From Chloranthus sessilifolius (taxonomy: Eukaryota > Streptophyta > Magnoliopsida > Chloranthales > Chloranthaceae), in assembly GCA_021018995.1 (NCBI GenBank), contig CM037587.1:90889251-90953250 (forward strand): a stretch of 64,000 nucleotides of DNA, in the 5' to 3' direction. The notes under the pieces were generated by a model. The model searched no databases and was not told where the DNA came from. It saw nothing but the letters and a program-made list of their open reading frames with translations. Position numbers and translations under genes: made by a program. Positions 2,824-56,448 of the stretch are shown here, in pieces (position 1 is the first letter of the stretch; each line of letters starts with the position of its first letter).

Positions 2824-3771
2824 TCCACAGGTGTGTCAATATTGTATCATATGTACTTTAGTTTTGTTAGATTTGTATTGCTTTCTTTTGTTCAAATTTT
2901 AGAGGAAATTCTAGTGGCCTCACTTAAGTCTGAATCTGTCTGGTCTGGTTTCTCTTTATGCTTGGTTTGATGATTACTGCTCTTGAATTGATGGTTTTTG
3001 CTTGAATGCACGATGTTGGATAATGATTTTTGCTGTCTATGCTTGAATGTTTGATCTTAATGTGTCTGGGGGTACCCCTGGTGGTGAGTTATGCCTAGGA
3101 TCCAGCCATAGCACAAATGGAAATGGCAGAATGAAGAGTGCATGGTCTCTGTTTAATGATTTATTGTCACGGGGTCCAAAAAGAGGCTTGGGAGACTCTT
3201 GCGCAATCCAAATGGAGCCCTTCAATAGCTGTCGCAAGATTCAAAGTAAACCTGGGAACCTCTTGCGTGATCAAAATGGAGCATTTCACTAGCTGTTGCA
3301 AGATTCAAAAGGATGCCTGGGAGACTCTCGCGCAATTCAAATAGAATTCTTCACTAGCTGTCGCGCGATCCGAAGTGAACCCTAGGATCCTCTCGCGCAA
3401 TCCAAGTGGCGATTACACCGTCGCTAGGTTTCATTTCCCATCCCGCGACAAGATATGTTCCAAAGCGTGCCAAGCTTAGCGACAAGTATTTTAACCCCAC
3501 GCTTGTCTCCCTTTCCAGTACTCTCTTCCTTCTTCATCCAGCGAAACCCTAGCTTCCGGCGCTCTTCTACCTCTCTCCTCCAACGTCCATTCTACAACCC
3601 ATCATTCACACCAGCATCCTACAGATTTGTTCCTAACGTCATCCCCATCAGTTGCCCTCTGCTTAGAGATCTCGCAGTGCATTGTATATCAGATCGAACC
3701 AAACCCTATGATTTTAGGGTAAGCACTCAAATCTCAGTCCCCCATTTTCATCTTCAAAAGTAGAGTTTGTA
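2824..3771 (+). other. Untranslated spacer between pol and the extra ORF of Athila-1
   Basis: No protein is supported here. The second half (about 3455-3771) reads like a plant 5' leader: pyrimidine-rich, low in ATG, running straight into the ATG at 3772. This would fit a separate transcript for the extra ORF, but I see no strong TATA box. The motif cluster at 3186-3440 lies just upstream of this leader. Confidence 0.6.
3186..3440. repeat. CGCGCAAT motif cluster, internal copy (Athila-1)
   Basis: Eight degenerate sites read alternately CTC(T/C)(T)GCGCAATCC-like and TGTCGCAAGATTC-like, that is, the two orientations of one motif. They lie in a loosely repeated unit that also contains the phrases CTTCACTAGCTGT and CCTGGGA. 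The same motif is repeated in the U3 of the LTR of this element and in no other element of the window. Confidence 0.8.
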
Positions 3772-4182
3772 ATGGCCCCTAAGAGTGCACCAAAGAAAAG
3801 GGGCAAGGATAAGGCCCCTGTTGAGCCCGCTCCTAAGAAGGTCAAGACTTCAAAGGCAACAGAAAAAGGGAAGTCCCCTGTAGCCCCCACTGAGCAAGAT
3901 AAAGGAAAATCCCCTATGATCCCTCTTGAACCCAAAACCAGCAAAATGAGGGTGAGGGCACCAAAAGCTCCAACCATGAAGAAACCACCAGCCCAACCAA
4001 AGAAACCAAGGCAGCCAAAGAAAAAGAGTCCAGCTGAGAGCAAAGCAAAGAAGAAAAAAAGTCCAACTGAGAAACAAGCAAGGAAGAAAAAGGACAAAGC
4101 TGCACTTAGGAAACATGCACAAAAGATGGGCTGGGACTGGTTCACAGATTCATATTCAGATTCAGATTCCTCCTCCTCTTAA
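3772..4182 (+). CDS. Extra ORF of Athila-1: lysine/proline-rich basic protein, 136 aa
   Basis: The ATG at 3772 begins an open frame of 136 codons. The protein is very basic and of low complexity: repeats of the PKK, KKKSP and KPRQPKK type fill residues 1-115, then a WDWF patch and an acidic serine tail (SYSDSDSDSSSS-like). It has no signal peptide or membrane segment. It stands where many Athila elements carry an extra, formerly env-like, ORF. The lysine clusters resemble nuclear localisation signals or a histone H1-like tail, so nuclear DNA or RNA binding is conceivable. I recognise no domain. The product may be a truncated version of a longer ancestral protein. Position and composition are seen; function is unknown. 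Confidence 0.6.
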   Translation: MAPKSAPKKRGKDKAPVEPAPKKVKTSKATEKGKSPVAPTEQDKGKSPMIPLEPKTSKMRVRAPKAPTMKKPPAQPKKPRQPKKKSPAESKAKKKKSPTEKQARKKKDKAALRKHAQKMGWDWFTDSYSDSDSSSS

Positions 4183-6003
4183 AACCTAGATTGTAGATTA
4201 GGCTTTTCTTGCCTTTGCACTTCTTTTCTTGTTATTGTAATTACAATTGTACATGTTTTTCTAAGATAATAGATTATTTTGTTTGTATTGCTTTGTGTAT
4301 ATTGTCTGTGTGTGTTTACCTTTTTTTTTTTTTTTTTGTTCCTGACTATTACCCTGCACTTTCTGACCTTTGAACCAGTGAGGACACTACTCCTCATGGT
4401 TTGGGGGTGTGGCAGGGTAGGTCTGCCAATAGAATAGTTAACTTTAGTGCAGTAGTGGTGGTATAATTGGGATGAATAAAGTTGAATTTCACGTAACTTG
4501 CTGCAATGAGGAAATTTGTGAAACTATTAAAATATTTTTGTAGACATTTTGAAACTGAAAATTTTAAAATCTTAGCACCACCATGAAGCTAACATTAGAA
4601 AAAAATTTAGTTAGTACTTAGTGAACCTAAGAGGAGAGAAAAAGGTGAAAATATACCCCATGGGTTAATTTGAGGACCATACCTAGTGAGATTTGGGCCC
4701 ATCATTTTCTTTTGAAGAGTGTTTTTGGCATTATTTATGCTCAAAGGACTGATTGAGTCAAGACCTTTTCACTAGAAGTTAGGCACCTCCAAATCTAAAC
4801 TGATTGACAGCACTCATGACACTAAGGAAATGATCCAAGGCCTTCATTTGGACAGTTTGAGCCTGAAAATCCAACCTTTTAAAACCGCCCTTTCGCATAC
4901 ACTAGTTGAGCCTTAAAAATCCTACTTTTCTTTTACAAACACCAGAGTACTTGTACCTTAACCTCTTGACCTAATTCAACCTCACCCTCACTCTGAGAAT
5001 TCAGAAGGTAAAGGAGGAGTTAAAGATAGTGAGAGTGGTCCAACATTTGGGGGAAGGTGAAGAAAAGCAACTTATGAACAGCAGTGTATCAATGGTATTT
5101 GTGTGGCAATTCATCATAAAAATCATAAAAATATTGAATAAAAATAAAAAGATAAAAAGAAAGAGAAGTCTAGAGAAGAACATCATCTGAAAATTAAAAA
5201 GAAGATGAGAAGCTGGCCACTTTGATTCTGGAATATATCAAGTAAGATAAAGTTTTGCTGAAATGAAGGTTGTGAAGTCACGAATCACTCCTTACCTTGC
5301 TGATTTCTTAATTTTGATTCCCTTTTTACCCATTGATTCTCTATATCCCTCACCCATAAGTCACATTACAACCCATTCAAAAAGACCTTATAGATCCAAA
5401 GTGAAATGAGCTGTCATGTGGAGATGAGGAGTTGTCCAATCTATGGTGAACAGTCATGAGGATGTCAGAAATTAGAAGCTTTGCCTATGCTCATGCTTGC
5501 AGGCCCATTTGGGGTCTCAGAATCGCTTTTGAATGTGAACACCCTCAGATTATCAATGTTGAGAGATAGCCCTGGTGAGAATTGGGTCTGAATTTAAACC
5601 TCATTAGGGTTGCATCCAACCTAATTTTTGAATTTAAGGCAAGCTTGGAACTGATTTTTACACATTGAATTTCTAATGTAAAATGAATGGTGGTGATGCA
5701 AACACATGCTAATTTTGAGTTTTAAATGGCCTACATTACTGCTACAATTTCCTCTGAAATCCAAAGGAAAGTGGATTGATGCTTTATTCATTGAGATTTG
5801 TTTTTCCATTGACTGCACCACTGTTAACATTTTTCTTGAGAAGTTTGTGGGTAACTTCATTGAAAACCCTCAAGAGACTTCACTCCTCCACTAGGGATCA
5901 CCTAGGGGTTTAAAAGGCTTGGTACATATGCTAAATATACCCATGATCCCTATGAAAGTGGCATTTAATTAGTTAAAGCTTTGCTAAGGGACTAGCAAAT
6001 ATT
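4183..6003 (+). other. 3' untranslated region of Athila-1, no gene seen
   Basis: A 1.8 kb AT-rich stretch between the extra ORF and the polypurine tract, with a 17-base T run near 4321. Short open frames on both strands have no recognisable content. Confidence 0.7.
4398..4412 (+). promoter_or_regulatory. Internal polypurine-like tract of Athila-1
   Basis: GGTTTGGGGGTGTGG follows a GTGAGGACACTA stretch. It closely resembles the true polypurine tract at 6004-6016. A matching arrangement (ATGAGGACATTGTG, then GTTTGGAGGGGGGG) occurs in Athila-2 on the - strand at about 13801-13845, so it is conserved. It may act as a second plus-strand primer. Confidence 0.45.
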
Positions 6004-6016: not shown

Positions 6017-6254
6017 TGTTAAGACCTGAAAAGTACCACTTTTCACCCCTTAACTTAATTTCTGTTAGACCCTTAGTCATTTAATAAATGTGTGTTAAGC
6101 CCATTTTGTAGGTAATAAGCAGCAGCTGCAGATAAGGCCCTAACCATGCCAAGAAGCTTACTTTTACCCCAGAAGTTTCTCAGGAGAAAGGAGGTTGGAC
6201 CCAGACAAAGAATTGGTTGTAGCATAGGCACAGCACAGCAGCAACAAGTCAAGA

Positions 6255-6800
6255 AGTGAGCTTCGCGCAGATGTCGCAGGGTTCAATTGAATTAGAAAGA
6301 ATGTTTTGCACAGTTATCGCGGGTTTCTGAAGGCAGCAAACCAACTGGTCACGCTGTTCTCGCACAGATTGATGACAGAAGGGAGTAAAAGGCATCCTTC
6401 ACGCAATTCTCGCGAGGCTTAGTCATAAGCTCTCCCGCAGTCTTGCGCAGCTCAAGAAAGGAGCCTTTAATCTTCACGTGATTCACTGTGGAGAGAGAGC
6501 TCCAGGCATTCCTGCGCGCAGCTATCGCGCAATGGCCGTGGGATACAGACCTTTAGGGAACTGCTCGCGCAATCCAGAGGCCTATTCACATTGCTTCTTT
6601 GCGAGGATCTCCACGAGATTCACCAAGGAATGAACCGCGCGCGCAATTCTCGCGCCACTCAAATGAAAAGAGCAATCCCGCGATGACCAAACCATCTATC
6701 CCGCGACTGCAAGAGCTTCAAGTCAATTTAATCCCACGACGCCAACTCTATCACGCGACAAGACCTAGAAATCTTTGCTACCTAGCGAGGCTCGGGATCT
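6255..6800. repeat. CGCGCAATT motif cluster in U3 of Athila-1
   Basis: About fifteen degenerate CpG-rich sites occur here, such as CGCGCAGATGTCGCAGG, ACGCAATTCTCGCGAGG and GCGCGCAATTCTCGCGCC. The best copies are imperfect palindromes around AATT. The cluster ends about 175 bp upstream of the TATA box. The same motif fills 3186-3440. Confidence 0.82.
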
Positions 6801-6974
6801 TAACTTCTCCCCACCTCTGTAGGGGTAATCTAGGAACTTCCAGCAACTAGGGCATGCACTCCAATCCTCCAATCTCCGTGCACAAGCCCGAGGCATCCAA
6901 GGAACAGAAATGAGTCATGATTCCATTGATAAAATTAGGGTTTTCCTAACCCTAATGCTCCCACAGCTAACTGC

Positions 6975-6982
6975 TATATAAG
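6975..6982 (+). promoter_or_regulatory. TATA box of Athila-1 LTR
   Basis: TATATAAG in the context CTGCTATATAAGCC is the best TATA match of the LTR and would start genomic RNA near 7005-7015. Confidence 0.65.
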
Positions 6983-7299
6983 CCTAAGCCTAGTTTAGGT
7001 TTAGGGGACTTCTGACTCTTTCTTGAATCAGCTGTAGAGTTCCAGTAGGCTAAGGTTAGGGTTTAGGTAGCTTCTTTTTCCCTTGTTCTTCTCTCCATAG
7101 TGCAACACTTGCTGGTTATGCCTTTGTATGTCTATTTGGAATAGTTTTAATGGAGTTTTATAATAGGATCTTATGCATGTATGGAATTGAAGTTTGAGGG
7201 TTACTCTGTACAAGGCTGCTACCTTGAGATCCTCCATTGCTAAGTTGTATTGTAAGCAATGGAGGATTGTTTTTAATGTTTTATTCAGATTCAAGTAAC

Positions 7300-7925
7300 T
7301 TGTGTGTCCAGGTTAGGCACATTGCAGGCCTATGCCCCACCACAGGATCCACTAAATTTGAATCTCCATGGGAGCTTGAGCTGGTAACCTTGTAAACATG
7401 GTGGTGGCAGTAATCTTCTTGTTCTGTCTCAAACCTCTGTGAGGAGGATAGCCTCTGTGGATAGTCTGTGACCATTTAAGTGGATAGGTTATAGCCCTAG
7501 GATGAGGCCAATCCATAGATCTAAGGCAGACTCTTCTTCTCTGTACTTGTGCTTGTAGCCCTGTGAGAGATTGTACAGAGATAGACTCCTCTGTATTTGT
7601 ATAGACCCACTATCAGATGGCAGATTTGATATGGCTATAGAGATTGTAGGCTTGTGACTAAATCACTACTGCCTCTCTAAAGCAGTGAATAGCTAGATCT
7701 AAAGCTAGTACTCAAACTCTTGCTGGTTCTGTGTGTCCAGGCTAGTGCACATTGCACGCCTAGCCCCACACACAGAACTTTAGAGGTTGAGGTTCCTATG
7801 GATTCTTGAGCTGGTAGCCTGGAAGAAGTAGTGCCTACAATGATAATCTTGTTTTGACCCATCTCTGGACTATGGTTCCCCTATTGGATAGTCTGTGACC
7901 ATTTAAGTAGACAGGTTATAGCCAT
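7300..7925 (+). repeat. Diverged internal duplication in the Athila-1 LTR
   Basis: 7300-7500 and 7725-7925 are related copies. Both contain TGTGTCCAGG, a CACATTGCA phrase, a CTTGAGCTGGTA phrase and GGATAGTCTGTGACCATTTAAG. Between the copies lies non-repeated sequence. Two tandem copies of the last phrase also occur in the solo LTR at 29860-29985. Confidence 0.75.
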
Positions 7926-8438
7926 AAGGGATTGGATCATGGCACAGGGATGAGTTGGATCCTTTCTCCTCTTTGGTAATAATGTAGCCATTGGACAGGA
8001 TTTCTATAGCAACAGATCTGAGTCTGAGTTATAAAACCCATCAGATTTGTACCTAATAGCTTACTTCTCACCCTTTTTATATTTATTTTCTCACACTCCA
8101 TCATTCTTCTCAACCATTTCTATAGTTCAGGCATTAGGTTACCTTAGGATGTAGACAATAGTGACCTTAAATCCCCTTCCATTTAGGATTGTCAGATCTG
8201 TTGTCAGATCTGGAGGGCCTACTAAAGATAGCTCCTTTGGAGTTTTAGATCATTTTTCCCTGTGGGACAAACTCTTACTTATTAAAACTTACTACAACGG
8301 GCCCTGTATCTTGTAGGTCTGTGTATTTTTAGACTTGCTGCTCTGTAGTTTTCAATCCAACTTTGATTTATTTTCACTAACACATTCTTATCACTATTTC
8401 CAATAAAGTTAGCAGCAAGCACTTAAAATACCTTAACA

Positions 8439-10206: not shown

Positions 10207-10981
10207 TGATGAGCTCTTTATATTGTTCTAATTAAGTCTTAACCTATTGCAAGCACATAATGAAAATTGTAATGCTAGTATAGGGTCGTTCCCACGAGGA
10301 AGTGATTTATTTCATATTTCGCTTGTCTGAAAACTTATATTTATCTTGTCTGAAAACTTATATTTATCTTTAAGGTTTCAAACTACTTGAGAAATATGAA
10401 TGAAAGAATGATTTCTTAAACTAATTGCAGAAAAGAAATCTAAATCCTCCTCTTTCGAGACTATGGTCGTCAATCACAATCCTTCAAGTCTCTGATATTT
10501 ATAAAATTAAAATACCGTTACACCGTATTGCAGTCTTCTAGAATTTGGGCATCAATCAAATAACTAAAATCCTTCAATACAGATTTAATCTAATCAACAA
10601 TCTCCTAAAACTTGGGAGTCAATTAAAGATGAAAAAATAAAACCGTTACACTAATCTGCAAATCTCAACCTAAGTCGTCAATTCAAATCAAAACTTGGAG
10701 ATGTTTACAAAGCAGTAAATTGTAATAAAAGTAAATCTAAACTAGGAAGCAAAGTAAGAATATATCTTTCACCCCTCAGCTGCAGGCATCAATTGCTTCT
10801 GAGAAATTACGGATATCTACACTAATCTTCTAGCTCTCATTCCCAGTCATCAATTGTGATCGAGGAACCTTGGATATCTAAACTACTCTAAACTATTTTT
10901 TGATGAGAAGAAAACCCAACCTCACTTGTCAATTGATTATGAGAATTCCTTTGATGAAATTATTCCTATGTCGAGTCCTTT

Positions 10982-10990
10982 CATTTATAG
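10982..10990 (-). promoter_or_regulatory. TATA box, Athila-2 left LTR
   Basis: On the - strand this reads CTATAAATG. The equivalent site in the other LTR is at 20539-20546. Confidence 0.55.
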
Positions 10991-11259
10991 ATCATAAGGA
11001 CTCAATTTACAGTGTTGTAATCCTAATAAAGAAACTACTAAAAACAAAAGATTCCTAATTTTATCTTTCTTGCTTTCAGTGGTTGATGTGCCTCTGGACT
11101 TTCTCCTTAATTTTAGCAACCGAGATCTTTAGGAGTCGTTCTTCATCAATCTTCTCAGATCCGTGATTTGCCAAACTTCTAATTCAAGAGTTCTTCTATT
11201 TTGATGCATGGTGGTATAGGTCTTCACGTGATCAACAATAATGAGAAGCTTTTATTTGT

Positions 11260-11450
11260 GAAATCGTAAGTCACGATTTCTCTCCTCTGTTATAGCTTTC
11301 TCTCTGGACGATTCTATATTATGATCGATCGCTTTCTTTCTGTATCGGCTTTTGCTTTGAACGTCTTCTGAAGAATCATAAATTACGATTTCTTGCTTCT
11401 TTGGCTTCGTTCAATCGTAAAGTACGATTTTTGGCTTTCAGTAGGTGACG
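11260..11450. repeat. AATCGTAA/TTACGATT palindrome cluster, Athila-2 left LTR
   Basis: Three near-palindromes at 11260-11280, 11373-11391 and 11413-11430 (AATCGTAAGTCACGATTT and variants), plus a half-site near 11448. On the - strand they lie in U3, roughly 270 bp upstream of the TATA box. The right LTR keeps them at 20836-21006 with some decay of CG to CA. Confidence 0.82.
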
Positions 11451-11635
11451 AATCGTCTTTTACATTTAATTATTTTTCTGATTAATTTTTGAGTTCATTT
11501 TGACGAAAATTAGCACTTTGGTTCTTTTTTACTGATTTTACTTAATATCTGTACATCATTAGCTTGTTAGTAGCAAACTGAGGTCTAGCATCACAAAGTT
11601 AAGGGTGGTAAAATGGTATATTCTGTGACTGATCA

Positions 11636-14217: not shown

Positions 14218-14508
14218 CTAAAATTTGCCACCGCAAAAAGAATATTTCCCTTCTGGATGGATGCATCCAATAGAAGAGGAAAAAGAAAATGGCTCAAGAA
14301 GACGGAGGGGGTGATGATGGAGAAGATTTCTGACGTTTGGGGAAAGGAGGTGGTGTTTCGTCAACGGGTTCTGGTTTTGGGAGGGGGATATAAATTCATC
14401 AATCAACCATCTCCTCTCCTCCAGAAGTGCAGAGATTGCTTCGGCCTCCCATTGAAGGAGTCTCTCAAATGCATCAGAAATCTCGAACCAACTCGGTGGT
14501 TTAGCCAT
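14218..14508 (-). pseudogene. Extra ORF remnant of Athila-2, 96 codons
   Basis: This frame lies where Athila-1 has its extra ORF: downstream of pol and of a private-motif pair, upstream of the internal polypurine-like tract. The N-terminus MAKPPSWFEISDAFERLLQ and a following Glu/Leu-rich stretch could form a helix. After that the text becomes His/Leu-rich and loses any protein-like pattern. It shares no sequence with the Athila-1 ORF. No family recognised. A + strand frame covers the same bases, and I cannot exclude that neither is real. Confidence 0.3.
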
Positions 14509-14776
14509 GACAAGAGTGTTGGTGATAGCAAAGAGGAATGGGATGGCATGACTAGGGATTTGGATACGTTTTTATAATCAACCAGGAGAGGAATTTGCAA
14601 AGTCACCATAAATGTTTATTATGAGTAGGCGTTGAAGAGTGTGAACCATTTGGTGATGGTATTAAATCTTGGTAAGACATGGCCGCGAAGTGATGCGCAA
14701 AACGGCACCTCTATTATCGGAAATAAGGTTTTTTCGATTACAAAATATGCGGCTCTAGTAGCACATTCTCCCAAAA

Positions 14777-14842
14777 ATTGTAGTTACTACGATAGTTTGT
14801 GGGTGACTACACATGTATTAAAGAATCGTAATCGCTACGATT
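14777..14842. repeat. Athila-2 private motif, internal pair
   Basis: ATTGTAGTTACTACGAT (14777-14793) and AATCGTAATCGCTACGATT (14824-14842) are near-palindromes of the motif in the LTRs of this element. On the - strand they lie about 270-330 bp upstream of the extra ORF start. Confidence 0.7.
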
Positions 14843-14999
14843 GATTTGGTGTTGACTGGACAACTACTAAGACACACCTACGACTGTACAATTAAGAAAG
14901 AGAATGATTTACACAAAATTGCTACGGATGAGTCGGTAGCTCGACAATGCCCGTTAGCATATCAGTCATACTCCGGATCTTTTAGTGACATTATGGTTG

Positions 15000-27116: not shown

Positions 27117-27121
<5 letters not shown>

Positions 27122-27165
<44 letters not shown>
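27122..27165. repeat. TA microsatellite
   Basis: About 22 TA units in the Athila-type solo LTR. Open frames here that read Tyr-Ile repeats come from it. Confidence 0.95.
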
Positions 27166-37972: not shown

Positions 37973-37988
37973 TTCTCCCCACCTTAGG
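37973..37988 (-). promoter_or_regulatory. Polypurine tract of Del/Tekay-2
   Basis: On the - strand CCTAAGGTGGGGAGAA precedes the LTR. Upstream of it TTCGAGGATGAAAA reads FEDEN, as at the pol 3' end of Del/Tekay chromoviruses. This suggests that the element derives from one of them. Confidence 0.75.
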
Positions 37989-40942: not shown

Positions 40943-40993
<51 letters not shown>

Positions 40994-43207: not shown

Positions 43208-43344
43208 GTGGGTAAGATTTGTCACTTTTTAAGCCATGAGCCACATTTTTTACCGGTGTAAATCATCCAAGTGGCAGAACATCATGTAACCTGATGTTAG
43301 CCCACAAAAATGCCAATAAGAGCATATTCACTAAATTCTCCAAA

Positions 43345-43470
43345 TTTTTTAATAATTCATGAATAATTCGCGAATTTAAAGTTCTATGAATTAATCACGA
43401 ATTATTCGTGAATGTTTGAAATTTTCATGTGTTTTCTAAAAATTCACGAATAATTGGTGATTTTTTAATA
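43345..43470. repeat. ATTCACGAAT/ATTCGTGAAT palindromes in the CACTA
   Basis: Six words of the AATTCACGAATAATTCGTGAA type lie in both orientations within 125 bp, just before the solo LTR. Confidence 0.7.
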
Positions 43471-43492
43471 AATCATGATTTTAGTATCTTTT

Positions 43493-45625
43493 TGTGACAG
43501 CCCGAATTTCAGCATCCCGAAATTCGCGCCATCTGCACGACCTTCAAGGCCGTGCCTTAAATTCATATCGTGACTCTTCGATATATATATACAGCCAAAC
43601 TGTAATTGAAGCACCTGCGAATACTCTAACTAAACATAAGAATTTATAAGTAGTCGATCCTACTAGGCTGTCCTTGTTCCATGCCAATTCATGGACATAA
43701 GGACATACCCAAATCTTCAATAACAATTATTCCTCCTAAATGGTTTACCAAAAGACAGTATTTAAAACCTTCAAATTAAAGAGGCTCGATATACCAAGCC
43801 ATACATAGTACTCTCTCCACTCACTCACAGAGTATGCAGCGGGTTTCCTAGAAGAATTCCTCAGGAGGAGGTTCTGACTCTTCAGTGGGTACGGACGCCG
43901 ATGCCCTTGGATTAACTTCACCCGAAGTCCCTGCCGTCGTTAGTTCTTGACCTGCGACGTATAGTCTAAGGGGTGAGCTACATCCTAGCTCCGTAGGGAA
44001 AACAAAAGAACATATAGATCATCCTTCACACATATGTCAGTAACTTAACAAAACATAAATTCTCAAGGAAACATTTATGTACAACAATTTGAATAACATG
44101 AATAACTCAATGGTTCCAATCTCTACTTAGCATAGCTTTGTTTAATCTCTTTATGAGTTTGTTTGTGAACTTGGCCTAATCACTTAAATCTTAACTTAAG
44201 TAATCCTCGAGCAATATAGCATCGAGCCCCGATGGAATACCCGCCATCGTCGTCTAACTAGACAGTTGTTATGTGTATTCCCTGGGAATACTGCCCGAGC
44301 CCCTTTCTCATAGGCAGCGGGGTCATTTCTCAATCTACATCCCTGGGATGTTATAATTTTACGGATTGGCCGCCGTACCGGTCACGGATATCCTGCCGAG
44401 TCAGTCGTGGGTATCCCGCCACGTCGGTGGGGTATTCTAATCAACCTTAAATAACAAAAGTATCAATGTGCTTTACATATAGTTATTCACCGTGATTGTG
44501 CTAAATATATTACATTAGGCCTTATCACGTTATCTTTGTTTCTCTGTTTGTTTTCTTACGCATCCCTGGGATGCCCCATGCTTCTATTTCACCTTTCTTT
44601 GATTTAACCACATTATCTTTCGTCCCCTGGGGACCTCAGGATTTTCCACATTGGAACACACACACACACCCTTATCATGAGGATTTATGAAATATACACT
44701 ATTTAAATGGACTATACTACACATATGAGTTCACAGAATAATGCACATGTTTCGAGAATATTCCCTACCTCGACGAATCTCAAAGCACGCTTGTCCTTAG
44801 AGGGTTATAATGCATCAACCTACATTTAAAAAGAATTTTACTTTAGAACGATCTAAGGTCTTTGGGGTGTAAGACACCCAAGTTTCTTATATTAGAAAAC
44901 CAATATCTGAATGGTCACCAGACCTCGCTCGCGCGGTCAGTTATCCTCGCTCGCGCGGTCACTTGACCTCGCTCGAGCGGTCTCTTGACCTCGCTCGAGC
45001 GGTCTCTTGACCTCGCTCGAGCGGTTAAATCGAGGTCGCTCGAGCGGTTTAATCGAGCTTTCGCAATATGACCGTGGACCCTCGCTCGAGCGAGCACCCC
45101 TTTAGTTTCAGGGACCTCTCGAGGGAGCCCAGAGTCATGTTTATAACTGTTTATCCTTCTTTAAACCTTAATCTTACACAAGTAGCATTTAGCCAACATC
45201 CTTCCTACTATTCAAAACATTCCTATGCATCTATCGTGTTTTTAACGTACCTCTGACGATGAATCACGCACATGTCCGATTTAAGATTTGAATATCTACT
45301 AGGCTATCCGGCCTCCCTGGTTCGTCCTCCCGTCATTACTTCTGATCTCCCTTGCCGACCTAAGTCTCAGCGAACCCTAGTTCTCTACCAGGCTCCTTTC
45401 TTCTTTCTCTCTATATTCTCTTTTTCTCTATTTAGGTTAGAATAGATTTACGTAAGGGCTCCTCTCTCTCTTCTTCACTTTTATATCTATAATCATTGGG
45501 ATACACTAGTGTGTTTCCCACGTACACACTTAAGGTATTTGGGTGTTTTGGGTCTCCTTGTGAAACACATATACCTATGTGCAAATACGTGCCGTGCACA
45601 GATCTCAAAAATCTGGGTTGTGACA
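43493..45625 (-). mobile_element. Solo LTR, Del/Tekay-like, 2133 bp, in the CACTA
   Basis: On the + strand it runs from TGTGACAGCCCG to GGTTGTGACA, with the duplication CTTTT at 43488-43492 and 45626-45630. The unoccupied sequence TTTAGTATCTTTTTAAATCTG survives in the next tandem copy at about 45820, which proves the exact junction. It shares CCTGCGACGTATAGTCTAAG and GGTGAGCTACAT with the LTR at 35657. No internal region. Confidence 0.92.
44917..45096. repeat. CGCTCGAGCG palindrome cluster
   Basis: Seven copies of CCTCGCTCGAGCGGTC or a close variant (two with CGCTCGCGCGG), spaced about 22-25 bp with CTTGA linkers. On the - strand they lie about 530-710 bp inside the LTR. The Arg-rich open frame here is a by-product. 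Confidence 0.9.
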
Positions 45626-46200
45626 CTTTTTAAATCTGTTTATGCTTTTAAATTTTATTTTTTATTTTCTTCTCCAAATTTTCCCCTGAACATGATGAAT
45701 TCTGCCGGATTTCTTCGAATTTTAACCTTGTCGAATTATTATCGAACCCCAACTTGGTGACTACGAATCAGAGGATGGATTTGAACCATTCGATCTCGAT
45801 TTTTTAATAAATCATGATTTTAGTATCTTTTTAAATCTGTTTATGCTTTTAAATTTTATTTTTTATTTTCTTCTCCAAATTTTCCCCTGAACATGATGAA
45901 TTCTGCCGGATTTCTTCGAATTTTAACCTTGTCGAATTATTATCGAACCCCAACTTGGTGACTACGAATCAGAGGATGGATTTGAACCATTCGATCTCGA
46001 TTTTTAATAAATCATGATTTTAGTATCTTTTAAATCTGTTTATGCTTTTAAATTTTATTTTTTATTTTCTTCTCCAAATTTTCCCCTGAACATGATGAAT
46101 TCTGCCGGATTTCTTCGAATTTTAACCTTGTCGAATTATTATCGAACCCCAACTTGGTGACTACGAATCAGAGGATGGATTTGAACCATTCGATCTCGGA
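45626..46200 (+). repeat. Three tandem copies of a 200-bp unit
   Basis: The unit from TTAATAAATCATGATTTTAG to GAACCATTCGATCTCG occurs three times with periods of 201 and 199 bp, nearly identical. The first copy is split by the solo LTR: its first bases are at 43464-43492. Confidence 0.93.
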
Positions 46201-46396
46201 ACTTTAATATGGACCGATGTTCATATCTAACATAGGGTCCATATTGAAGTACTTAGATTGGATGTTTCAAGCCCTCTACTTGGCATAGTTTTATGAGCTA
46301 AGTGATGTTCATCTGTTCCGCCACTTGGATGAATCAGATTTGTCAAAAGTGTGGCGCCTAAGTAGCCAAAATTTTGCGATGTGAAGGGTATGGTGT

Positions 46397-46671
46397 AAGT
46401 GACTGACATTATTTTAGTAAATGTTTTAGTCATGAAACCTTGGTCGAACTTGTAATTCTTACTTCCCTTCAAAAAAATAATTTAGTTTCATTGATTAAAA
46501 AAAAAATTGATTTAACTTTCCATCAAGCTCATAATCTCTCATTGCCTTGCAAACAAAGTTCCTTTATTGTTGACATGATCTGGTCATTTTTACATGAAAG
46601 CGAAATGAGAATGCTCTTTTTGGAGTAGTTTCTGTCACAGTCCATATTCACTAAAATAATGTCAGTCACTT
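46397..46671. repeat. 26-bp inverted repeat, 220 bp apart
   Basis: AAGTGACTGACATTATTTTA at 46397 and its reverse complement ending at 46671 match over 26 bases with one mismatch. No clear target duplication is seen. Confidence 0.75.
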
Positions 46672-47159
46672 TTGCCACCTCTTTATACACATGCCAAATA
46701 ATCAAGGCCATCCATTCTGTTGGCTGCTTCTTGTATGAATCATGGTTCAAAACACCAATCGGATGTTATTAACCATTTGATCAATGCTCTGTTTGAGCAG
46801 CAATTGATAATTCACTGACCATTCAAATGTTGGCAATTGTTCCAATTGTTAGGGCTCAAAATTTTGAATTTTGGGCTGTGGCTTCTCCTAGAGTTTACAT
46901 TAATGCCTGGATTTCTAGATTGATTGGCATTTGTGCCAGAAGGTGGGAGAAAGAGTGTGAGATTATATATAAGTGATGTAAGCCTGTGTCTAGACTCGAG
47001 AGTCTCTAGATTTTATCCTAACTTCTAAGTTGTATCATGTTTATGGAACTTTCTGCCTAGGCTATATATGTGTACTTGATACTTTCTCCCCATTTCTCAT
47101 GTATGCTTCTTTGGTCTCATTATACCGTTTAAAATATTAATCAATTTCCTGTGGTGCAG

Positions 47160-47245
47160 TCTAATGGCTGTGAGCTCCACTTTTCCATGGTCGATGGAGA
47201 TTTTAAGAAGTTTGAAGGAAAATGGTCCTTAAAAGTTGGTGTAAG
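47160..47245 (+). pseudogene. Captured START-like (polyketide cyclase/lipid transport) exon
   Basis: Between GTGCAG and AAG/GTAGGA the exon reads ELHFSMVDGDFKKFEGKWSL. This is a hallmark stretch of the plant START-like, COQ10-type protein family represented by Arabidopsis At5g08720, predicted to be organellar. Only one exon is present. Confidence 0.75.
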
Positions 47246-47372
47246 GTAGGACTATAAGAAACGATTTTGTCATGTGAAAGTTGCCATTATTCCTTTTTCC
47301 CCATTTTTTTATGTTTATTTTTTTTTGGTTTGGGAAGCAACTTTTGTTTGTTAAAATTATTTCTACAATTAG

Positions 47373-47911
<539 letters not shown>

Positions 47912-48260
47912 GTATTCAATGATATTACTAGTTGAAACTGATGGTTCCTTCAAATTATTTGCTGCGGACACTTCAATAAATTCCAACAAGCATTTATTTG
48001 CACAGAGAACTCTCTCATACCTCATTGGTCATGTTGAGGTAAATGCATGAAATCGTCACTACTCATTAGTTTTTCCTTGCAATATATATTCATGAAGTGT
48101 TTTTTGTGGTTATTAGTAAATTTAGAAAGGTGTTTTCAAATCTATCTATCATCCTCTTTTATTTTCAATGGTCCCTACCGTGCAGGAAATAACTTGTTCT
48201 GAAGAAACTAGCAGTTGCAGGAGAAACAGGAAAGCTCTAGAGATATAAAATGAGTAATCA
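47912..48260 (+). pseudogene. Further captured exon-like sequence, unidentified
   Basis: A second protein-like text, ETDGSFKLFAADTSINSNK and TLSYLIGHVE, lies at about 47932-48041 before GTAAATG and does not continue the tRNA synthetase. At 48186-48250 another possible exon end follows TGCAG. No family recognised. Confidence 0.35.
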
Positions 48261-48924
48261 TCAGTGCCTGCTATAGTTCAAGTGGAAGTGGAAACAGTGG
48301 AGGCTTTTGGAGTGGATTAGACACCTTGATGAAACTATTATGAGGTCAACGCCGAGGCTGCACCTTCTTGCATACATGATGTGATTCACCAGCTTGCCAT
48401 TGTCACATATTCAACTTTTTATATCCAAAATGAGTTTTTATTTCTTTGACCACGCTTGCAAGTGAATAATATCGGTCCCTTACTTGTATATAAATAATTT
48501 GGCGGAATGAATGATTTTACGTAATTTAAAATAAAATGGTTCCAATCAATTAAAGGAGTTCAATCCGAGAAGGATCTCTCAATTGTGCATTCTTTCGCTT
48601 TAGTAGTCGAGGTATCATTATATGTCTACATCATCATCTTGTTCTCAATAAAAAATTGCCTTAAAAAAGTAATTAAAAACGATTAAAAAAATTGCTTTAA
48701 AGCAATTGCATTAAAAATAAGCATTAAAAGATAATAGTATTTTAAAAAAAAATTTGCATAAAAATTGTCGACGTAAATTTTTATTTTTATTTTTATTTTT
48801 AAATATATATATATTTTTTTAATTTCATTAAAAAATCACTGCCAAAAATTTTTCATAAAAAAATCACTGCCAAATATATATATATTTTAAAATATATTTA
48901 AAGAAAAAAAAATGTTGGAGAGCT

Positions 48925-49217
48925 TTAGTCTCTCTAATATGAGGTCACTTATTGGAGACGGCTTAAAGCCGTCTCCAATAAGTATTGAAAATGGCTAGAT
49001 GACTTATTAGAGACGTCTCTAATATATCTTTGGAGACGGTCATATGCCGTCTCCAATAACCTTGACTATTAGGGACGGCTTCCATTTGGTCTCCAAAGAC
49101 AATGGAGACGGGACTATTTGAGACTACATGGAAGCCGTCTCCAATACTATTGGAGACGACTTAGACACCTTTGGAGACGGCCAAAAGCCGTCTCCAATAA
49201 ACACATTTTTTGTAGTG
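48925..49217. repeat. CACTA right subterminal repeats
   Basis: About twelve GAGACGG/CCGTCTCC words, many paired as GAGACGGCTTAAAGCCGTC-type palindromes, next to the right end. They mirror those at 39337-39640. Confidence 0.92.
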
Positions 49218-49948: not shown

Positions 49949-50172
49949 CTGGGCGTATATATTACATACACCCAGCTTATGCATAATAAAAATCAAGAAA
50001 ACTAGGAGGAAACTGAGAAGATGGGTGCCCGCGCTGTTGGCCATCTATGCTGGGCGTATATATTATATACGCCCGACCAAATTTAGCCCAAAAATGTCAG
50101 GCGTATATAATATATACACCTGACCATTCTAGGGCCAAATTGGTTGGGCGTATGTAATACATACGCCTGAGC
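49949..50172. repeat. GCGTATATAATATATACGC palindromes, LTR cluster (Tat-2)
   Basis: Four palindromes at 49949-49976, 50050-50078, 50098-50125 and 50144-50172, each with GGGCG(TA)n...CGCC arms. Right arms vary (CACCC, CGCCC, CACCT, CGCCT), but pairing is mostly kept. Confidence 0.9.
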
Positions 50173-50554
50173 AAAAGTTGTCATTTTATATGAAACTTCA
50201 AACAGTCATAACTTTTGAACCACAACTCCAAATTGGGCGATCTTTGGCTCGTTGGAAAGCTAGAGAAGTTATCTTTCCAATGGTATATGGCTCATCCTCA
50301 GAAGTGGTCAGTATAAAAATTTGTAGCTCTCCTCCCATCAAATGCTCAGAAGGGTTTAAATTGAGTTTGGGAAGAGATCCTAGGGTTTATAGGTGATCTC
50401 TAAGGGTTGCGGGAATGGTTCTAATGGGTTTTTAGGTGATTCCTAAAGGTCTAGATAGGTTCCTAAGGGTTCAAGGGTGCCATCGGAAGCACAGGGGTAC
50501 ATCTCTCCCGAAGTACAGATTGATCGGGCCTTGGGCCGAATTTGGATGTCTACA

Positions 50555-50567: not shown

Positions 50568-52520
50568 GGTATTCGATCACTAATGATCGGATGCCAAAGA
50601 CAAGAGACATCCGAGGAGGTCCAAGGCATGTTTGATGGGTCCGCTTGGTTCAACTCAATTCTCAAACATTCATGGTGATGGTGAGTGTACGTAAGCCCTC
50701 TCATTTCGGGATATCGTCCGTTCCTCAAAGCTAACAGTCCCCAAGCGCATTGCGACATTACTGGGCATAACTGTGATGATCACAAAAAGTGTAAGCCCGC
50801 TAGCCGGGATATCGTCCACTTCCTGAGGGAAATTATAGATTGGTGATGTTGAGTATTAATCTGAACCAGACAGCTCCATGAAATGGGATGATCGATCTAT
50901 GCCTCAAAGTCGATGCGAAGCACGCAAAGCGAAGGCCTAAACAATGTGTCCAATCCTATGGGGTATTGACAACTCCATTGGATTCGCCACGGGTGCCCTT
51001 ACCTAGGTAAGACTCAAAGTTTCTGGGCGAACCCATCAACCTCGAGGTTGCTTTAGCATGATTTACCCAAGTTAAGCGAATATTGATGTCGCAACACTTC
51101 TTGGGAATGCATGCCCATTTTCAGAGTAATTTTTTGTATTTTTTTTTTAATTTTCTTTTGTTTCGAGGCCTCTAAGCGAAGTTCAAGGACCTCTGGCAAT
51201 TTTATTCTTGCACAACCTTTTAAGCGGATCAAATGTCAGTTGATACACTTTAAGAATGGGTGTGCTCTGCTGGGGATGGGTGAACCTTGGGGATGTGCTC
51301 GTTCTAGTGACGAGGTGCTCCCGATTCACATGAACCGGAGTGCCTTAACTCGAGACAAAGCTAAAAAGGATTGGGCTAGAACCAAACATCCATCAAAAGA
51401 GATGGCCAATTCTAGCCTCCGTCCCTAATAAAATCACATCTTACTAACTATGCACAGACAGACACCCATCAGGGGCGATAAGCAGTAAATATGCGCAAAC
51501 GGAAGCCTGGACCCTAAGGTACAATTTACGAGGACAAATGACCATCCTGCGGATACCCAGACGCAAGTGTGTACATTCAACAGGGACACTGTGCCTATAT
51601 AGGTTTTAAGCCTGTGTAAAAGGAAATAAAAGGGAATGAGCCCTTCGGTCTGTATGTTTGCACATAGTTTGGTTGGTTGTAATTTTATTTTTGACGGGTC
51701 AGTTTCAACTGACAATAGACTTTTCGAATGGTATGAAGTTGGGGGCACTCTTGGTCAACATAGATCAGAGGGGGGATGGTCAGAGCCAAAGCTTGGAAGG
51801 TGGGGTCAACCTACTCAAGATTTTTACTTCATAATAAAAGGTGGTCATTCCGAACCTTCTCCTTCTTTTTTCTTTTTCTTTTGCATATGTCAGTTCAAGA
51901 CTTTGAGCATGCTCAAAATGTTTTTATTTTCGCATGTATCCTTAGGCAGATCAACTTGCCATGTTGATATACCTTAAGGATGTGTGCACTCCGGTGATAG
52001 GTCCTTGGTTTGCTTGCCGGATCAGGTCTCGACTTCTGCTGGGGAAGTCTTGGGCTAGGTGTATGTTCCTAGGAGTGATCGGTGATGGATGAAGTTCATT
52101 TGCCTGCCGGATCAGGTATTGGGTGTCCCTGTATAAAACGAGGTTCGAGAACTTTCGGGTGAACCCGATCATTCTGAATTGATTTAACACAGTTCTCGGA
52201 GTGGCACAAATGGCCATTGCGACGCTCTTTTGAGAACTAGTGTCATTTCTCAGGCTTTTTCCTTTTTCTCTTTTTTCTTGGATCTTATGATTTTATGGAG
52301 CACTCATCGGGTGCTTATAGATCTAGATCCGCTTATTGTGGCATGGCTCCTTTAGGCCAATCGAAGAGAGCTCGAAGGGTTGTTTGGGGATGGGTGCACC
52401 ATCACTTGATGGTATGCGGGCTTCTAAGGGAGACCGGGCCATGGCCCATAGCATGCAAGGGGGGGTCGTCGGGCCTCAAAGTAGAAAAATGGCCGGGCAA
52501 TTTTAAAAACTGCCGTTTCT
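50568..52520. other. Tat-2 region between polypurine tract and antisense genes
   Basis: No supported gene. The left part matches 34280-35256 of Tat-1 in inverted orientation. Short frames on both strands show no domain. Confidence 0.6.
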
Positions 52521-52599
52521 GGTCGGGCGTATATAATATATACGCCTGACCAAAATGCAACGAAAAATGGTCGGGCGTATATATTATATACGCCTGACC
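52521..52599. repeat. GCGTATATAATATATACGC palindromes upstream of the PMD gene
   Basis: Two copies (52521-52551, 52569-52599) in which the palindrome extends to GGTC...GACC, about 31 bp each, 0.94 kb before the gene start. Confidence 0.92.
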
Positions 52600-52839
52600 A
52601 AAAATGGCAGTTTTTAAAACTGTCCGAGCCCGAGCACAAAAGGGGTCCCCTCTTTCAAACTTCATCTTCCTCCCTCCTTTCTCATGTCCGGGACAGCCCC
52701 CTTAGGTTTTGGCATTTGATTTTTCTTGAGTTCTATTACCGGAGGTTGCGGGTGCGGATCAAAATACGTATATCCTTTGCCGATTTTGGACCTATTTCCT
52801 CTCCCGTTGAAGGTACTCGATCCTATGAATTTTTTTATG

Positions 52840-53540: not shown

Positions 53541-55939
53541 ATGTCTAACCATGAAGAGCAGGATCCCCAGGGGGGGCCAGAGATGGCCTATGGTCCTCAT
53601 GGGGAACAGTTCATCGTTTCACAGCGCTCTTCCCAACCTTGGTACCAAATGCAAGGAGAAGCTGCCTGCACCGGCCTCCTTCATTGTCAGCATACTAACA
53701 TGTCCAACTTTGGGATCGTTGGTCGGGTAAACAGACAAGCCCCTTTTTTCTTTTGTTTTCCTTTGATGCCTTCGATATACCACTTTGCCCTTATTTGACT
53801 GATGCCTTTTGTTTGCAGCCCCTACCACACATTATGTTTCGGGGTGGTTGGTTTGACCTTCAACGCCTCGTACTTTATCTCCCCCAGGTGGTGAAGGACC
53901 TGCTCGCCCAAGCTGGTTTGGGGACTTCATTTCGTGCCCCGCTGTGAGGGCTGACACGGCCTATCTGAAGGCCCTGATAGAGCGCTTCCGCCCCGAGACC
54001 ATGACATTTCACATGGCTATGGCCGAGATGACCCTCACACCCGCCGACTAGTCCATGATCACTGGGGTTCGTGTTGGAGGGGTGCCAGTGATACCTGCCC
54101 GTACGCCTGATAGGGAGGAGGTGATTCGGCTGATAGGGGCTTACCCGTCCTCTGGGAACGTTCGTGGTTCTGAGGTTAAGCTATCCTGGTTGGTGGGTTT
54201 GTTCGAGCCTCACGAGTTAGTGGACCTGGGCCAGCCTGATGCGGCCATTTACCTCGAGCCCGAGCGTGCACTGATGCTGGCTCGCATTTCTCTGTTGTTC
54301 CTCTTGGGCAAGACTCTCCTCTCAAACACTAGCGGAGGGCGGGTCTCGTTGTCCTTACTCAGCCTTATGGTGAACTGGGACACCGTGCATCGGTTCAATT
54401 GGGGAGGTGCTGGCTACACGGTGCTCATGTCTAGCTTGGTGCGAACCGTTCTTAGGGATTCCAGTTCCGTTGTGGGCTTCTGGCCCGCTCTTGAGGTAAT
54501 TTATCCTTTGGTCCCAGTTCATTCCCCCTTCTTTTTTACATATTTGTTTTATCTGCTTACTCTCTCAGGTATGGGAGTATCTGCATTTTCAACCTGGTCA
54601 CCCTCTGCTTCTCTCGAAAGTTCCCACGTTTCCCCTCATGAGCAATTGGCATGCGAACCGCCGCCGAGACGTAGGTATGAAGCACTTGGAGTTAGGGTTG
54701 CGCTCTCAATTCGATCTGCTGATCCCAAAGCAGGTATAACACTTTCTCTCTTTGCAAATTTGATGGCTCTTTTATGCTTGCAGGTTCTGACTGAATGTAT
54801 AAATTTTTCCTCCTTTTTTGTCGAGCAGGTCATACTTGATCCCTATGTCGGATCCCCCTTTTGGAACCTGGCTGCAATGGGCCCCTCTCGCCTCTTGTTG
54901 GATCGGCGCATTGTTTTCTTCTATGGGTCCTGGGCTAGGGCCTATTACCTAGGAGAGAGGGTGGTTCATCAGTATCGACCACTTTTTGTCGTGCCTCAGG
55001 CTCCTCCAGATGATGTACTAGCTCCCGAGGGTTCTATTGAGATTCTCACTGCTCGCTTTCTCCACCATGGGGTCCCCATTGATGATCTTCTCTTTCTTAG
55101 GGAATATCAGATGTGGTATGAGTCTCTGCCTTATCGTTCCTTGCTGCCCCGATTCGTGCCTGGTGCCAACTTTTTGGCTTTTGGTGGTCCGCGATCCCAG
55201 GTAATGCTCTTTCCTCCTTCTATTAGCAGCCTTCCATATGGTTGCCTCAATTGCCTTGCTTTTGAACAAAGACCATTTCTCTCTATAGTTTGGACAGGAT
55301 GATGATTCAGATGAGGGGGCTGAGGCAGCTGTTCCTGGTGAGGCTACTGGTGCGGGACCTTCCGACCCTTCGGTGTTTGTGCTTCCGGCAGCTCACCAAC
55401 TGAGGTCCAGGGGACCTTTAGGCGCTTGGACGATGCCTTTCTGTCGCGTATGTGTGCCGATGTGGCTGAGAAGGCACGCATTTCTGCTGACGCTATCCGG
55501 ATTCCACCTCCTGAGCTGATCCCTGGGGTAATCCTTCCCTTGTTACCTTGCTCTTCTATTTTCTGGGATCATACTGACGGCCTGTGTAACTGACACCTCT
55601 CTCTTCATCTTTTTGCTGCAGGATTCTGAGTCGGCCGTAAACTAAGCCGAATATTACCGTAACATTCCCGGTCTTAGGGAGGTTGAGGTGGTGAGTGAAT
55701 GTTGATCGTATCTGGTCATCCTCATATTTACCTTTTGCTTGTTTCCCTAACTCATATTTACTTTCTGCTTGTTTCCCTAACAGATGGCCCTTCGTGTGCT
55801 TACGCAGCGTGCTCGTGAAAAGGAGTCGCGCTCTCTACTTGGCTGCATCTCTCAGGCGTTGACTCGGGTGGGGGAGACTCGTACCTTTCAAAGTGCGACC
55901 CGGCGCCGAAAGAAATCAAAGGGGGCTACCCAGGACTAG
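53541..55939 (+). pseudogene. Plant mobile domain (PMD) gene, antisense gene of Tat-2
   Basis: Inferred exons: 53541-53726, 53819-54495, 54569-54733, 54829-55200, 55289-55527, 55622-55690, 55784-55939, all with GT-AG borders. The protein has the PMD signature: RGGWFDLQRLVLYLPQV, ERFRPETMTFHMAMAEMTLT, ITGVRVGGVPV, LLGKTLLSNT, HRFNWGGAGYTVLMSSL, GFWPALEVWEYLHF and WYESLPYRSLLPRF, then a basic C-terminus (RRRKKSKG). PMD proteins include MAIN/MAIL1, nuclear factors of transposon silencing and gene expression in Arabidopsis. A frameshift near 53920 and a TAG in TPAD*SMITG (54049-54051) break this copy. It runs opposite to pol, as antisense extra ORFs in other Tat elements do. Confidence 0.83.
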
Positions 55940-56327
55940 CTCATTTTCTGAAAATTTGAAACAATGAAACAATTTAGACTTGGCTTTATAGGGGGATATG
56001 TAATAATTTTTAAACAACAATTTTTTTGGATGGTTTATAATTTTTATGGTTTTTATGAATGTTTCATTTGGTTATCCCTTTGCTTTGATGGTTTCCTTTT
56101 TTGGGCCTCAAACGGGCCGGCACCCCTCCAATGATGGGGTTGATCTTACAGGTGGTTCTCCGTATATAACCTACGGACGGTGTGTCATCCGAAGGTTCCC
56201 CATGGGTGCGCGAGCATGCCCGCCTGTGGGCTGCCCCGAGATGAAAAAGTGGGCTAAGCAAAAATGTTCCTCCTTGGGGAACAAAAATGGATCAAAGCGA
56301 GGGAAGCCTTAACTTCCTTGCTTTTAA

Positions 56328-56448
56328 CTGGGCGTATATATTACATACGCCAGGCAAACATAACTGCCACATTACCCTGGCGTATATAATATACACGCTT
56401 GGCTAAAAATTTGAATTTTTGGCTGGACGTATATATTATATACGCCTC
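56328..56448. repeat. GCGTATATAATATATACGC palindromes upstream of the second gene
   Basis: Three copies at 56328-56354, 56376-56402 and 56421-56448, ending about 180 bp before the ATG at 56630 and about 390 bp after the stop of the PMD gene. Confidence 0.9.

What the first reader, a model, noticed from the sequence alone, without database searches (positions are those of the whole stretch)
3186..56448. Each element carries its own CpG palindrome cluster: a private-motif system across unrelated transposons
Eight elements of at least four families show clusters of a short motif, different in each: CGCGCAATT, AATCGTAATTACGATT, TATCGAA, CCGATCGATCGG, ATCGATTAATCGAT, CGCTCGAGCG, GCGTATATAATATATACGC, and GAGACGG/CCGTCTC. 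Common rules are seen. The core is mostly palindromic and contains CpG. Clusters lie in U3 or subterminal DNA. Where an extra gene exists, a second cluster precedes it. CpG normally decays fast in methylated transposons, so its retention suggests selection or demethylation. Known precedents are the VANC proteins of Arabidopsis VANDAL elements, which bind element-specific repeated motifs and remove methylation, and TNPA binding in En/Spm. An analogous recognition system in LTR elements is inference.
Basis: partly seen in the sequence, partly recalled or inferred. Interest (0 to 1): 0.93.

Follow-up and report, generated by a model that had tools for sequence, protein, structure and literature searches.

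The report
Private CpG switch-motifs in plant retrotransposons
Several different jumping genes packed into one stretch of plant DNA each carry their own short, often mirror-symmetric, CpG-bearing sequence repeated near their ends, and in at least two of them the same private sequence also sits in front of an extra gene, which looks like a control switch known so far from another retrotransposon group.

Summary
Eight plant elements (three Athila-type, three LTRs probably of one lineage, one CACTA, one Tat-type with antisense PMD-like genes) each have a private motif cluster, richer in CpG than the rest of the element in 8 of 8. In element A the contrast is extreme: CpG o/e 1.03 in two clusters against 0.12 elsewhere, although its pol is nearly open and has shifted arginine to AGR codons. 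Eleven of the 12 strongest non-simple palindromes lie in clusters of C, E, F and H; shuffles give 0-2. Words taken from the LTR alone find a second cluster before the extra gene in A and before both PMD-like genes in H. Spacing is regular (mostly 19-24 bp in C/E/G, 47-48 bp in H), in H even where spacers look randomised. The closest precedent is not VANC but the Sirevirus RM boxes (PMC2829016). Best reading: family-specific cis-regulatory arrays for dimeric DNA-binding proteins; whether the factor is self-encoded is open.

The parts
3177..3480 (+). Element A (Athila-type, + strand): second motif cluster (TCTCGCGCAATCC / GTCGCAAGATTC words), upstream of the extra ORF
   Evidence: CpG o/e 0.95 against 0.15-0.16 in the flanks; found by 7-mers taken from A's U3 alone, 8 hits/300 bp against a maximum of 4 in 40 resampled sequences
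3772..4182 (+). Element A extra ORF, 136 aa, Lys-rich, ends GWDWFTDSYSDSDSSSS
   Evidence: translation; no Pfam family above cut-off; no relative at E<=0.001
6017..8438 (+). Element A 3' LTR (TGTTAAGACC...CCTTAACA)
   Evidence: sequence; TATA at offset 959, downstream of the cluster
6250..6800 (+). Element A U3 motif cluster
   Evidence: CpG o/e 1.06 against 0.06 in the rest of the LTR
10207..11635 (-). Element B 3' LTR
   Evidence: 87.6% to 19776-21211; ends read
11250..11475 (-). Element B U3 cluster, consensus AAATCGTAATTTACGATTT
   Evidence: gaps of 38-39 bp in 3 of 6 over both LTRs
19776..21210 (-). Element B 5' LTR; cluster 20830-21040 matches the 3' LTR cluster, with CpG decay
14680..14860 (-). 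Element B weak second cluster upstream of the small extra ORF
   Evidence: 3 seven-mer hits at 14824-14836; CpG o/e 1.52
14218..14508 (-). Element B small extra ORF (96-codon open frame, possibly frameshifted)
   Evidence: no detectable similarity to A's extra protein
24686..32224 (+). Element C solo LTR (TGTAACATCCC...GCTATCACA), TSD GCATC, interrupted by D
   Evidence: sequence and TSD
25650..26025 (+). Element C cluster, 13 sites near CCGATCGATCGG, 8 of 12 gaps 19-23 bp
26692..30817 (+). Element D solo LTR (TGTTAAGCAC...CCCCAACA), TSD CTATG, nested in C
   Evidence: part after the TATA similar to the A and B LTRs
27400..28430 (+). Element D cluster ACCTATCGAA (not palindromic, irregular spacing)
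   Evidence: 11 of 11 CCTATCGAA in this LTR; gaps 8-205 bp
35657..37973 (-). Element E 3' LTR
   Evidence: sequence; 67-82% to the G LTR in parts
37100..37380 (-). Element E cluster ATCGATTAATCGAT, 6 of 9 gaps 19-23 bp
39338..49217 (.). Element F: CACTA transposon, TSD TCC; subterminal TTGGAGACGGC arrays at 39360-39620 and 48950-49200
   Evidence: CACTACAAAAA...TTTTTGTAGTG ends; repeats
43493..45625 (-). Element G solo LTR, TSD CTTTT, nested in F
44913..45092 (-). Element G cluster CGCTCGAGCG, 22-23 bp spacing in 5 of 6 gaps
49950..50180 (-). Element H (Tat-type, - strand) LTR cluster of the GGCGTATATAATATATACGCC palindrome, 4 copies
52520..52610 (+). Element H cluster upstream of the first PMD-like gene, 2 copies, 48 bp apart
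   Evidence: 18 of 48 held-out 7-mer hits
53541..55950 (+). PMD-like gene 1 (approximate limits, intron-like breaks), antisense to pol
   Evidence: PF10536 E 1e-6, below gathering score
56150..56450 (+). Element H cluster upstream of the second PMD-like gene, 3 copies, 47-48 bp apart
   Evidence: 20 seven-mer hits/300 bp against null max 5; spacers no more alike than shuffles
56630..58133 (+). PMD-like gene 2 (approximate limits), antisense to pol
   Evidence: PF10536 E 9.6e-8 and 1.9e-5 in two frames, below gathering score

Best explanation
The clusters are family-specific cis-regulatory arrays. Each lineage keeps its own short CpG-bearing, mostly dyad-symmetric site, repeated (in C, E, G and H at a set pitch) in its LTR or subterminal DNA, as the landing platform of a DNA-binding protein that binds as a dimer and probably cooperatively. 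In A and H (weakly in B) the same module stands in front of the accessory genes, so that the LTR promoter and the accessory-gene promoter answer to the same factor. The site is swapped for a new word over evolution while the LTR backbone, and in E/G nearly the same pitch, persist. Shown here: private motifs, CpG kept in the lineage (A), the module at accessory genes (A, H), turnover between sister LTRs (E, G), and regular pitch. Inferred: that a protein binds, that binding is sensitive to CpG methylation (so the array works as an epigenetic on/off switch), and what the factor is.
For: Private cores. CpG enrichment in 8 of 8 elements. In A, CpG o/e 1.03 against 0.12, while its pol has 2 internal stops in 933 codons and arginine as 42 AGR: 6 CGN; so CpG was lost while the lineage still worked and was kept at the clusters. 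48 of 55 cluster CpGs in A lie in GCG/CGC words against 15 of 37 elsewhere in A (p 3e-6). In D, 24 of 32 motif CpGs are kept while the rest of the cluster has o/e 0.20. Palindrome excess 12 against 0-2. Held-out second clusters: A and H, where 38 of 48 hits fall in the two groups before the PMD-like genes. H: palindromes before PMD2 average 19.1 of 21 identical to the other H copies (18 comparisons), gaps are 47-48 bp in 5 of 6, yet pre-PMD2 spacers are no more similar than shuffles (0.48-0.63 against means of 0.56-0.59). C and E pitch p 0.0001 and 0.0045. TATA follows the cluster in A, B and D. Same layout described in Sireviruses.
Against: One window and one copy per family (B has two LTRs); no other genomic copies could be fetched. 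Motif CpGs decay in B's LTR pair at about the general rate, and over all copies 31 of 172 consensus CpGs read TG/CA. With motif copies masked, clusters of B and G (o/e 1.40, 1.39) and in part A and C (0.79, 0.73) are still CpG-rich, so regional composition or hypomethylation may contribute. Motif copies were picked by mismatch limits, which favours intact CpG. G's cluster lies after a TATA. D's spacing is irregular and 3 of 6 B gaps are off-pitch. A non-CpG repeat is denser than the CpG word in D. The regular pitch in E and G may partly be plain tandem duplication.
Confidence: 0.7

Rival explanations
1. VANC-like self-encoded anti-silencing: the accessory protein of each element (PMD-like proteins in H, the Lys-rich 136-aa protein in A) binds its own motif, removes or blocks silencing, and co-evolves with it. 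This is a sub-case of the best explanation with the factor named.
For: Same motif in the LTR and before the accessory genes; motif replaced between sister LTRs E and G; A and B extra proteins without detectable similarity, as their motifs differ; PMD-A clades are gypsy-borne and PMD proteins MAIL1/MAIN act in silencing (PMC5418596 passages); TnpA and VANC precedents.
Against: A shared promoter motif shows co-regulation, not self-binding. VANC words lack CpG and symmetry. No DNA binding by the PMD-like or A proteins is shown. C, D and G are solo LTRs with no accessory gene to see.
Confidence: 0.2
2. Enhancer arrays for different host transcription factors, each family having recruited another one; CpG is incidental. 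Also a sub-case of the best explanation.
For: Arrays before TATA (A, B, D) and dyad symmetry in several; the Sirevirus authors compared their RMs with host TF sites.
Against: Does not by itself explain why the words of all 8 elements carry CpG in CpG-poor DNA, nor the reuse at antisense accessory genes, although it is compatible with both.
Confidence: 0.4
3. RNA hairpin sites: palindromes fold in transcripts and feed small-RNA production or another RNA step.
For: 7 of the 8 lowest-energy separated 110-nt windows lie in the H, G and F clusters, down to -71.3 kcal/mol; maize Sirevirus palindromes attract small RNAs (Bousios 2016, as cited in PMC10760457 passages).
Against: B clusters are ordinary (-22.8 to -29.5), and A, C, D and E lie at -38.6 to -41.1, about as low as 2-3% of all windows. 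Does not explain fixed pitch or CpG.
Confidence: 0.1
4. Neutral tandem duplication: slippage makes short arrays, and the reader picked those with CpG.
For: E and G are TRF arrays of about 22 bp; 7 of 15 unbiased clusters have no CpG; B motif CpGs decay.
Against: A's CpG contrast (p 6e-28), second clusters before genes, H pitch with randomised spacers, 8 of 15 clusters with CpG words against 15.5% expected.
Confidence: 0.1

Closest known systems
Sirevirus repeated motif (RM) boxes, Ty1/copia (Bousios et al. 2010, PMC2829016; abstract and passages seen)
   Same: Family-specific palindromic CpG-bearing words in many copies in the LTR upstream of TATA, forming CpG islands, with additional copies upstream of the extra (ENV) gene in elements that have one (77 of 79 linker copies there). 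One listed word, ACAATCGATTGT (Tnd-1), is close in type to C and E here.
   Different: Here the elements are Ty3/gypsy of probably three lineages plus a CACTA; words lack the CGG-CCG signature; accessory genes are antisense PMD-like genes or a small sense ORF; spacing is regular in several; G's cluster lies downstream of a TATA. That paper compared Ty1/copia (Pseudoviridae) elements.
VANDAL/VANC anti-silencing (PMC5735166 passages; PMC10398659 abstract and passages)
   Same: Private short motifs, clustered in non-coding DNA, fast turnover between related elements, accessory gene.
   Different: DNA transposons; words without CpG or symmetry; binding by the element's protein is shown there, not here.
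CACTA subterminal repeats and TNPA-like binding (PMC4219821 passages)
   Same: Element F: CACTA ends, 3-bp TSD, inverted subterminal repeats.
   Different: No transposase-length open frame seen in F.
Tat/Retand elements with antisense accessory genes (PMC11963269 and PMC7264820 passages)
   Same: Antisense genes between pol and the 3' LTR; an own promoter is reported for Grande gene23.
   Different: No palindrome shared by LTR and accessory gene in the passages seen.

Membership tests
Sirevirus RM architecture (as a layout) | Private dyad-symmetric CpG word in many LTR copies | tested here: met
   C, E, G, H and B; A partly, D not symmetric
Sirevirus RM architecture (as a layout) | Cluster upstream of TATA | tested here: inconclusive
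   A, B and D yes, G no, C, E and H unresolved
Sirevirus RM architecture (as a layout) | Further copies 5' of the extra gene | tested here: met
   A and H yes, B weak
Sirevirus (taxon) | Ty1/copia pol and CGG-CCG core | tested here: not met
   integrase follows RT/RNase H; words lack CGG...CCG (C has CCG...CGG, the reverse order)
VANDAL/VANC | Element protein binds its own motif and removes methylation | not testable with these tools
   needs binding and methylation data
VANDAL/VANC | MULE-type DNA transposon with VANC gene | tested here: not met
   retrotransposon pol and LTRs for A, B, H; LTRs for C, D, E, G; CACTA ends for F
CACTA (element F) | CACTA ends, 3-bp TSD, subterminal repeats | tested here: met
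   CACTACAAAAA/TTTTTGTAGTG, TSD TCC, repeats
CACTA (element F) | Own intact transposase | tested here: not met
   longest stop-to-stop frame is 104 aa and overlaps nested G; a decayed transposase was not searched for
Tat lineage (element H) | Second RNase H (RVT_3) and antisense accessory gene | tested here: met
   PF13456 E 7.8e-20; PMD-like frames on the opposite strand. That this RNase H marks Tat is recalled
PMD family (H genes) | PF10536 above gathering score | tested here: not met
   28.6, 32.0 and 24.5 bits against 34.9 in three separate frames of genes with intron-like breaks; E 1e-6, 9.6e-8 and 1.9e-5
Athila lineage (A, B) | RT phylogeny | not tested
   assigned from recalled RT, PBS and layout features

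The most novel reading that the evidence does not exclude
Plant Ty3/gypsy lineages run private operator/regulator circuits: an element-borne accessory protein (in H a PMD-like protein) recognises its own CpG palindrome at fixed pitch in the LTR and at its own promoter, switching both on when unmethylated, and word and protein co-evolve so that neighbouring elements do not cross-talk. Sirevirus RM boxes, these gypsy arrays and VANDAL arrays would then be parallel cases of one strategy.
Probability: 0.17. Interest if true: 0.88.

Novelty: new variant of a known kind. Interest (0 to 1): 0.62.

Why it matters
It extends a layout described as Sirevirus-specific (within Ty1/copia) to Ty3/gypsy elements and to antisense PMD-like genes. 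It also names exact DNA words to test as baits for the undefined function of retrotransposon PMD proteins. Element A gives a clean natural case in which CpG has been stripped from a retrotransposon lineage that still worked, except at its motif arrays, so the questions of how such elements escape silencing, and whether the switch is self-made, become directly testable.

Tried and rejected
Tried without yield: relatives of A's integrase in viral contigs (12 pattern matches, none confirmed); protein relatives of A's extra protein (60 candidates, none at E<=0.001) and of a PMD2 frame (6649 candidates, none), so that collection seems poor in plant proteins (my inference); the H palindrome in viral contigs and genome contigs (0 and 0). 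De novo EM motif search recovered the claimed word in C, E, G and F and in part in A, but not in B (A/T-rich word), D (GCTGCAGC instead) or H (other word).

Considered and rejected: a pure chance artefact; copy-level protection of motif CpGs (no evidence in B); one common motif for all elements; VANC membership; hairpins as the general cause. A binomial test used 14 merged clusters; a recount gives 15, and the test was rerun. One search printed only 40 of H's 48 hit positions; one search printed all 48.

Not done: structure prediction, methylation, small RNAs, copies from the host genome, a pol tree for lineage names.
Full report
What is there. The window is a nest of plant transposons. A (Ty3 pol 25-2823, extra ORF 3772-4182, 3' LTR 6017-8438) and B (10207-21210, minus strand; LTR pair 87.6% identical) look Athila-type; D (26692-30817, TSD CTATG) is a solo LTR whose part after the TATA matches stretches of A and B. 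C (24686-32224, TSD GCATC), E (3' LTR 35657-37973) and G (43493-45625, TSD CTTTT) have similar LTR ends by eye; E and G align in the LTR body, C and E in one 105-bp stretch outside the clusters, C and G not at all. F is a CACTA element (39338-49217, TSD TCC). H (minus strand, pol 60141-63388) is Tat-type, with two PMD-like genes on the opposite strand. X (plus strand, pol from 21454) is a relative of H whose 3' LTR is cut by E inside a sequence resembling H's palindrome. Boundaries are read. Lineage names rest partly on recalled features.

Private motifs. Specific cores lie wholly in their own element for A, D, E, F, G and H, and less strictly for B and C. An exact 8-mer scan without prior words found 15 clusters, 8 of them with CpG words against a background of 15.5%. 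It missed A, B and C, and 7 clusters are CpG-free. Of 12 strong non-simple palindromes in 64 kb, 11 lie in the clusters of C, E, F and H; eight shuffles gave 0-2. A, B, D and G add none at that score.

CpG. Cluster against rest o/e: A 1.03/0.12, B 1.69/0.46, C 2.08/0.76, D 0.58/0.30, E 2.20/0.62, F 1.00/0.54, G 1.59/0.80, H 1.02/0.67 (Fisher p 6e-28 to 0.02; borders chosen after the fact). A is the strongest case: its pol keeps 5.1% arginine, now 42 AGR to 6 CGN, with 2 internal stops in 933 codons. CpG was therefore lost while the lineage still worked, and the two arrays kept it. In A the retained CpGs sit in GCG/CGC words (48 of 55 against 15 of 37). In D the motif keeps 24 of 32 CpGs while the rest of the cluster is at o/e 0.20. 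With motif copies masked the remainder is at 0.23 in E, 0.54 in H, 0.73 in C, 0.79 in A, 1.40 in B and 1.39 in G, so in B and G CpG richness is not confined to the motif as I defined it. After insertion motif CpGs decay: B's LTR pair shows 8 kept and 6 decayed in the cluster against 7 and 13 outside (p 0.30), and over all copies CpG transitions exceed other C/G transitions about twofold (31 of 165 against 25 of 262). Selection or protection thus shows in the replicating lineage, not in dead copies.

Same word before extra genes. Seven-mers enriched in A's U3, applied to the rest of A, peak at 3143-3442, just before the extra ORF (8 of 12 hits; null max 4 in 40 resampled sequences). H's LTR words give 48 hits in the rest of H, 18 just before PMD1 and 20 just before PMD2, 10 scattered (null max 5 per 300 bp). 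B's words peak at 12275-12574 (6, null max 5), with only 3 hits before its extra ORF.

Grammar. Centre-to-centre gaps are 20-24 bp for 9 of 12 in C, 19-22 for 6 of 9 in E, 22-23 for 5 of 6 in G, 38-39 for 3 of 6 in B, and 47-48 for 5 of 6 in H, the sixth being 101. F's are mostly 13-23, D's are irregular (8-205), and A was not measured. In H the copies before PMD2 average 19.1 of 21 identical to other H copies, while their 26-27 bp spacers resemble the other spacers no more than shuffles do; the U3 and pre-PMD1 spacers do resemble one another (0.67-0.81). In C and E the pitch beats random placement (p 0.0001 and 0.0045). E and G, sister LTRs, have different words but nearly the same pitch; tandem duplication may contribute there.

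Turnover. E and G align over 569 bp at 67% and in two shorter pieces at 76-82%, but not at the clusters. A/D and B/D align only after the TATA, A and B not at all. C and E share related ATCGAT words, so not every family pair has an unrelated word.

Mechanism. I read these as binding arrays for dimeric proteins, reused at accessory promoters. Binding, methylation sensitivity and the factor's identity are inferred. Predicted RNA hairpins are strong in H, G and F (-50 to -71 kcal/mol) and weaker in the rest (-22.8 to -41.1).

Known kinds. The Sirevirus paper (PMC2829016, abstract and passages) describes the same layout in Ty1/copia: private palindromes with CpG in LTRs upstream of TATA, and further copies before ENV. 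In the ten library searches made, of which only the top rows were listed, I saw no title or abstract start that describes it for Ty3/gypsy or for PMD genes; subscription papers are largely absent there. PMC5418596 passages say PMD-A clades are encoded by gypsy elements. VANC words have neither CpG nor symmetry.

Noticed in passing
43340-43470: A small further cluster of ATTCGTGAAT/ATTCACGAAT words with palindrome TCACGAATTATTCGTGA in F, just left of the G insertion (250-bp window 43351-43600 has CpG o/e 2.01).
   Followed up: no
30901-31150 (C) and about 44371-44430 (G): By eye, CpG-rich GGATATCC-type repeats appear in both C and G LTRs, a word shared between families rather than private.
   Followed up: no
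35643-35660: E is inserted in X's U3 within GCGTACATAATA..., half of a palindrome like H's but with a changed arm.
   Followed up: partly
50563-50600 and 35226-35321: A 38-bp imperfect palindrome beside the LTR start of H, in a stretch shared with X; the only one of the 12 strong palindromes outside the clusters.
   Followed up: no
27096-28850 (D): GCAGCTGC/GCTGCAGC words without CpG are the top EM motif of D's U3, ahead of the CpG motif.
   Followed up: partly
38325-39187 (minus): Frames upstream of E's 3' LTR with a very weak Transposase_32-like match (E 0.038, far below cut-off), possibly an accessory ORF of E.
   Followed up: partly
13228-13785; 45609-46228: Three exact 186-bp tandem copies in B; three copies of a 201-bp repeat beside G, two of whose junctions show G's empty target site.
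   Followed up: no
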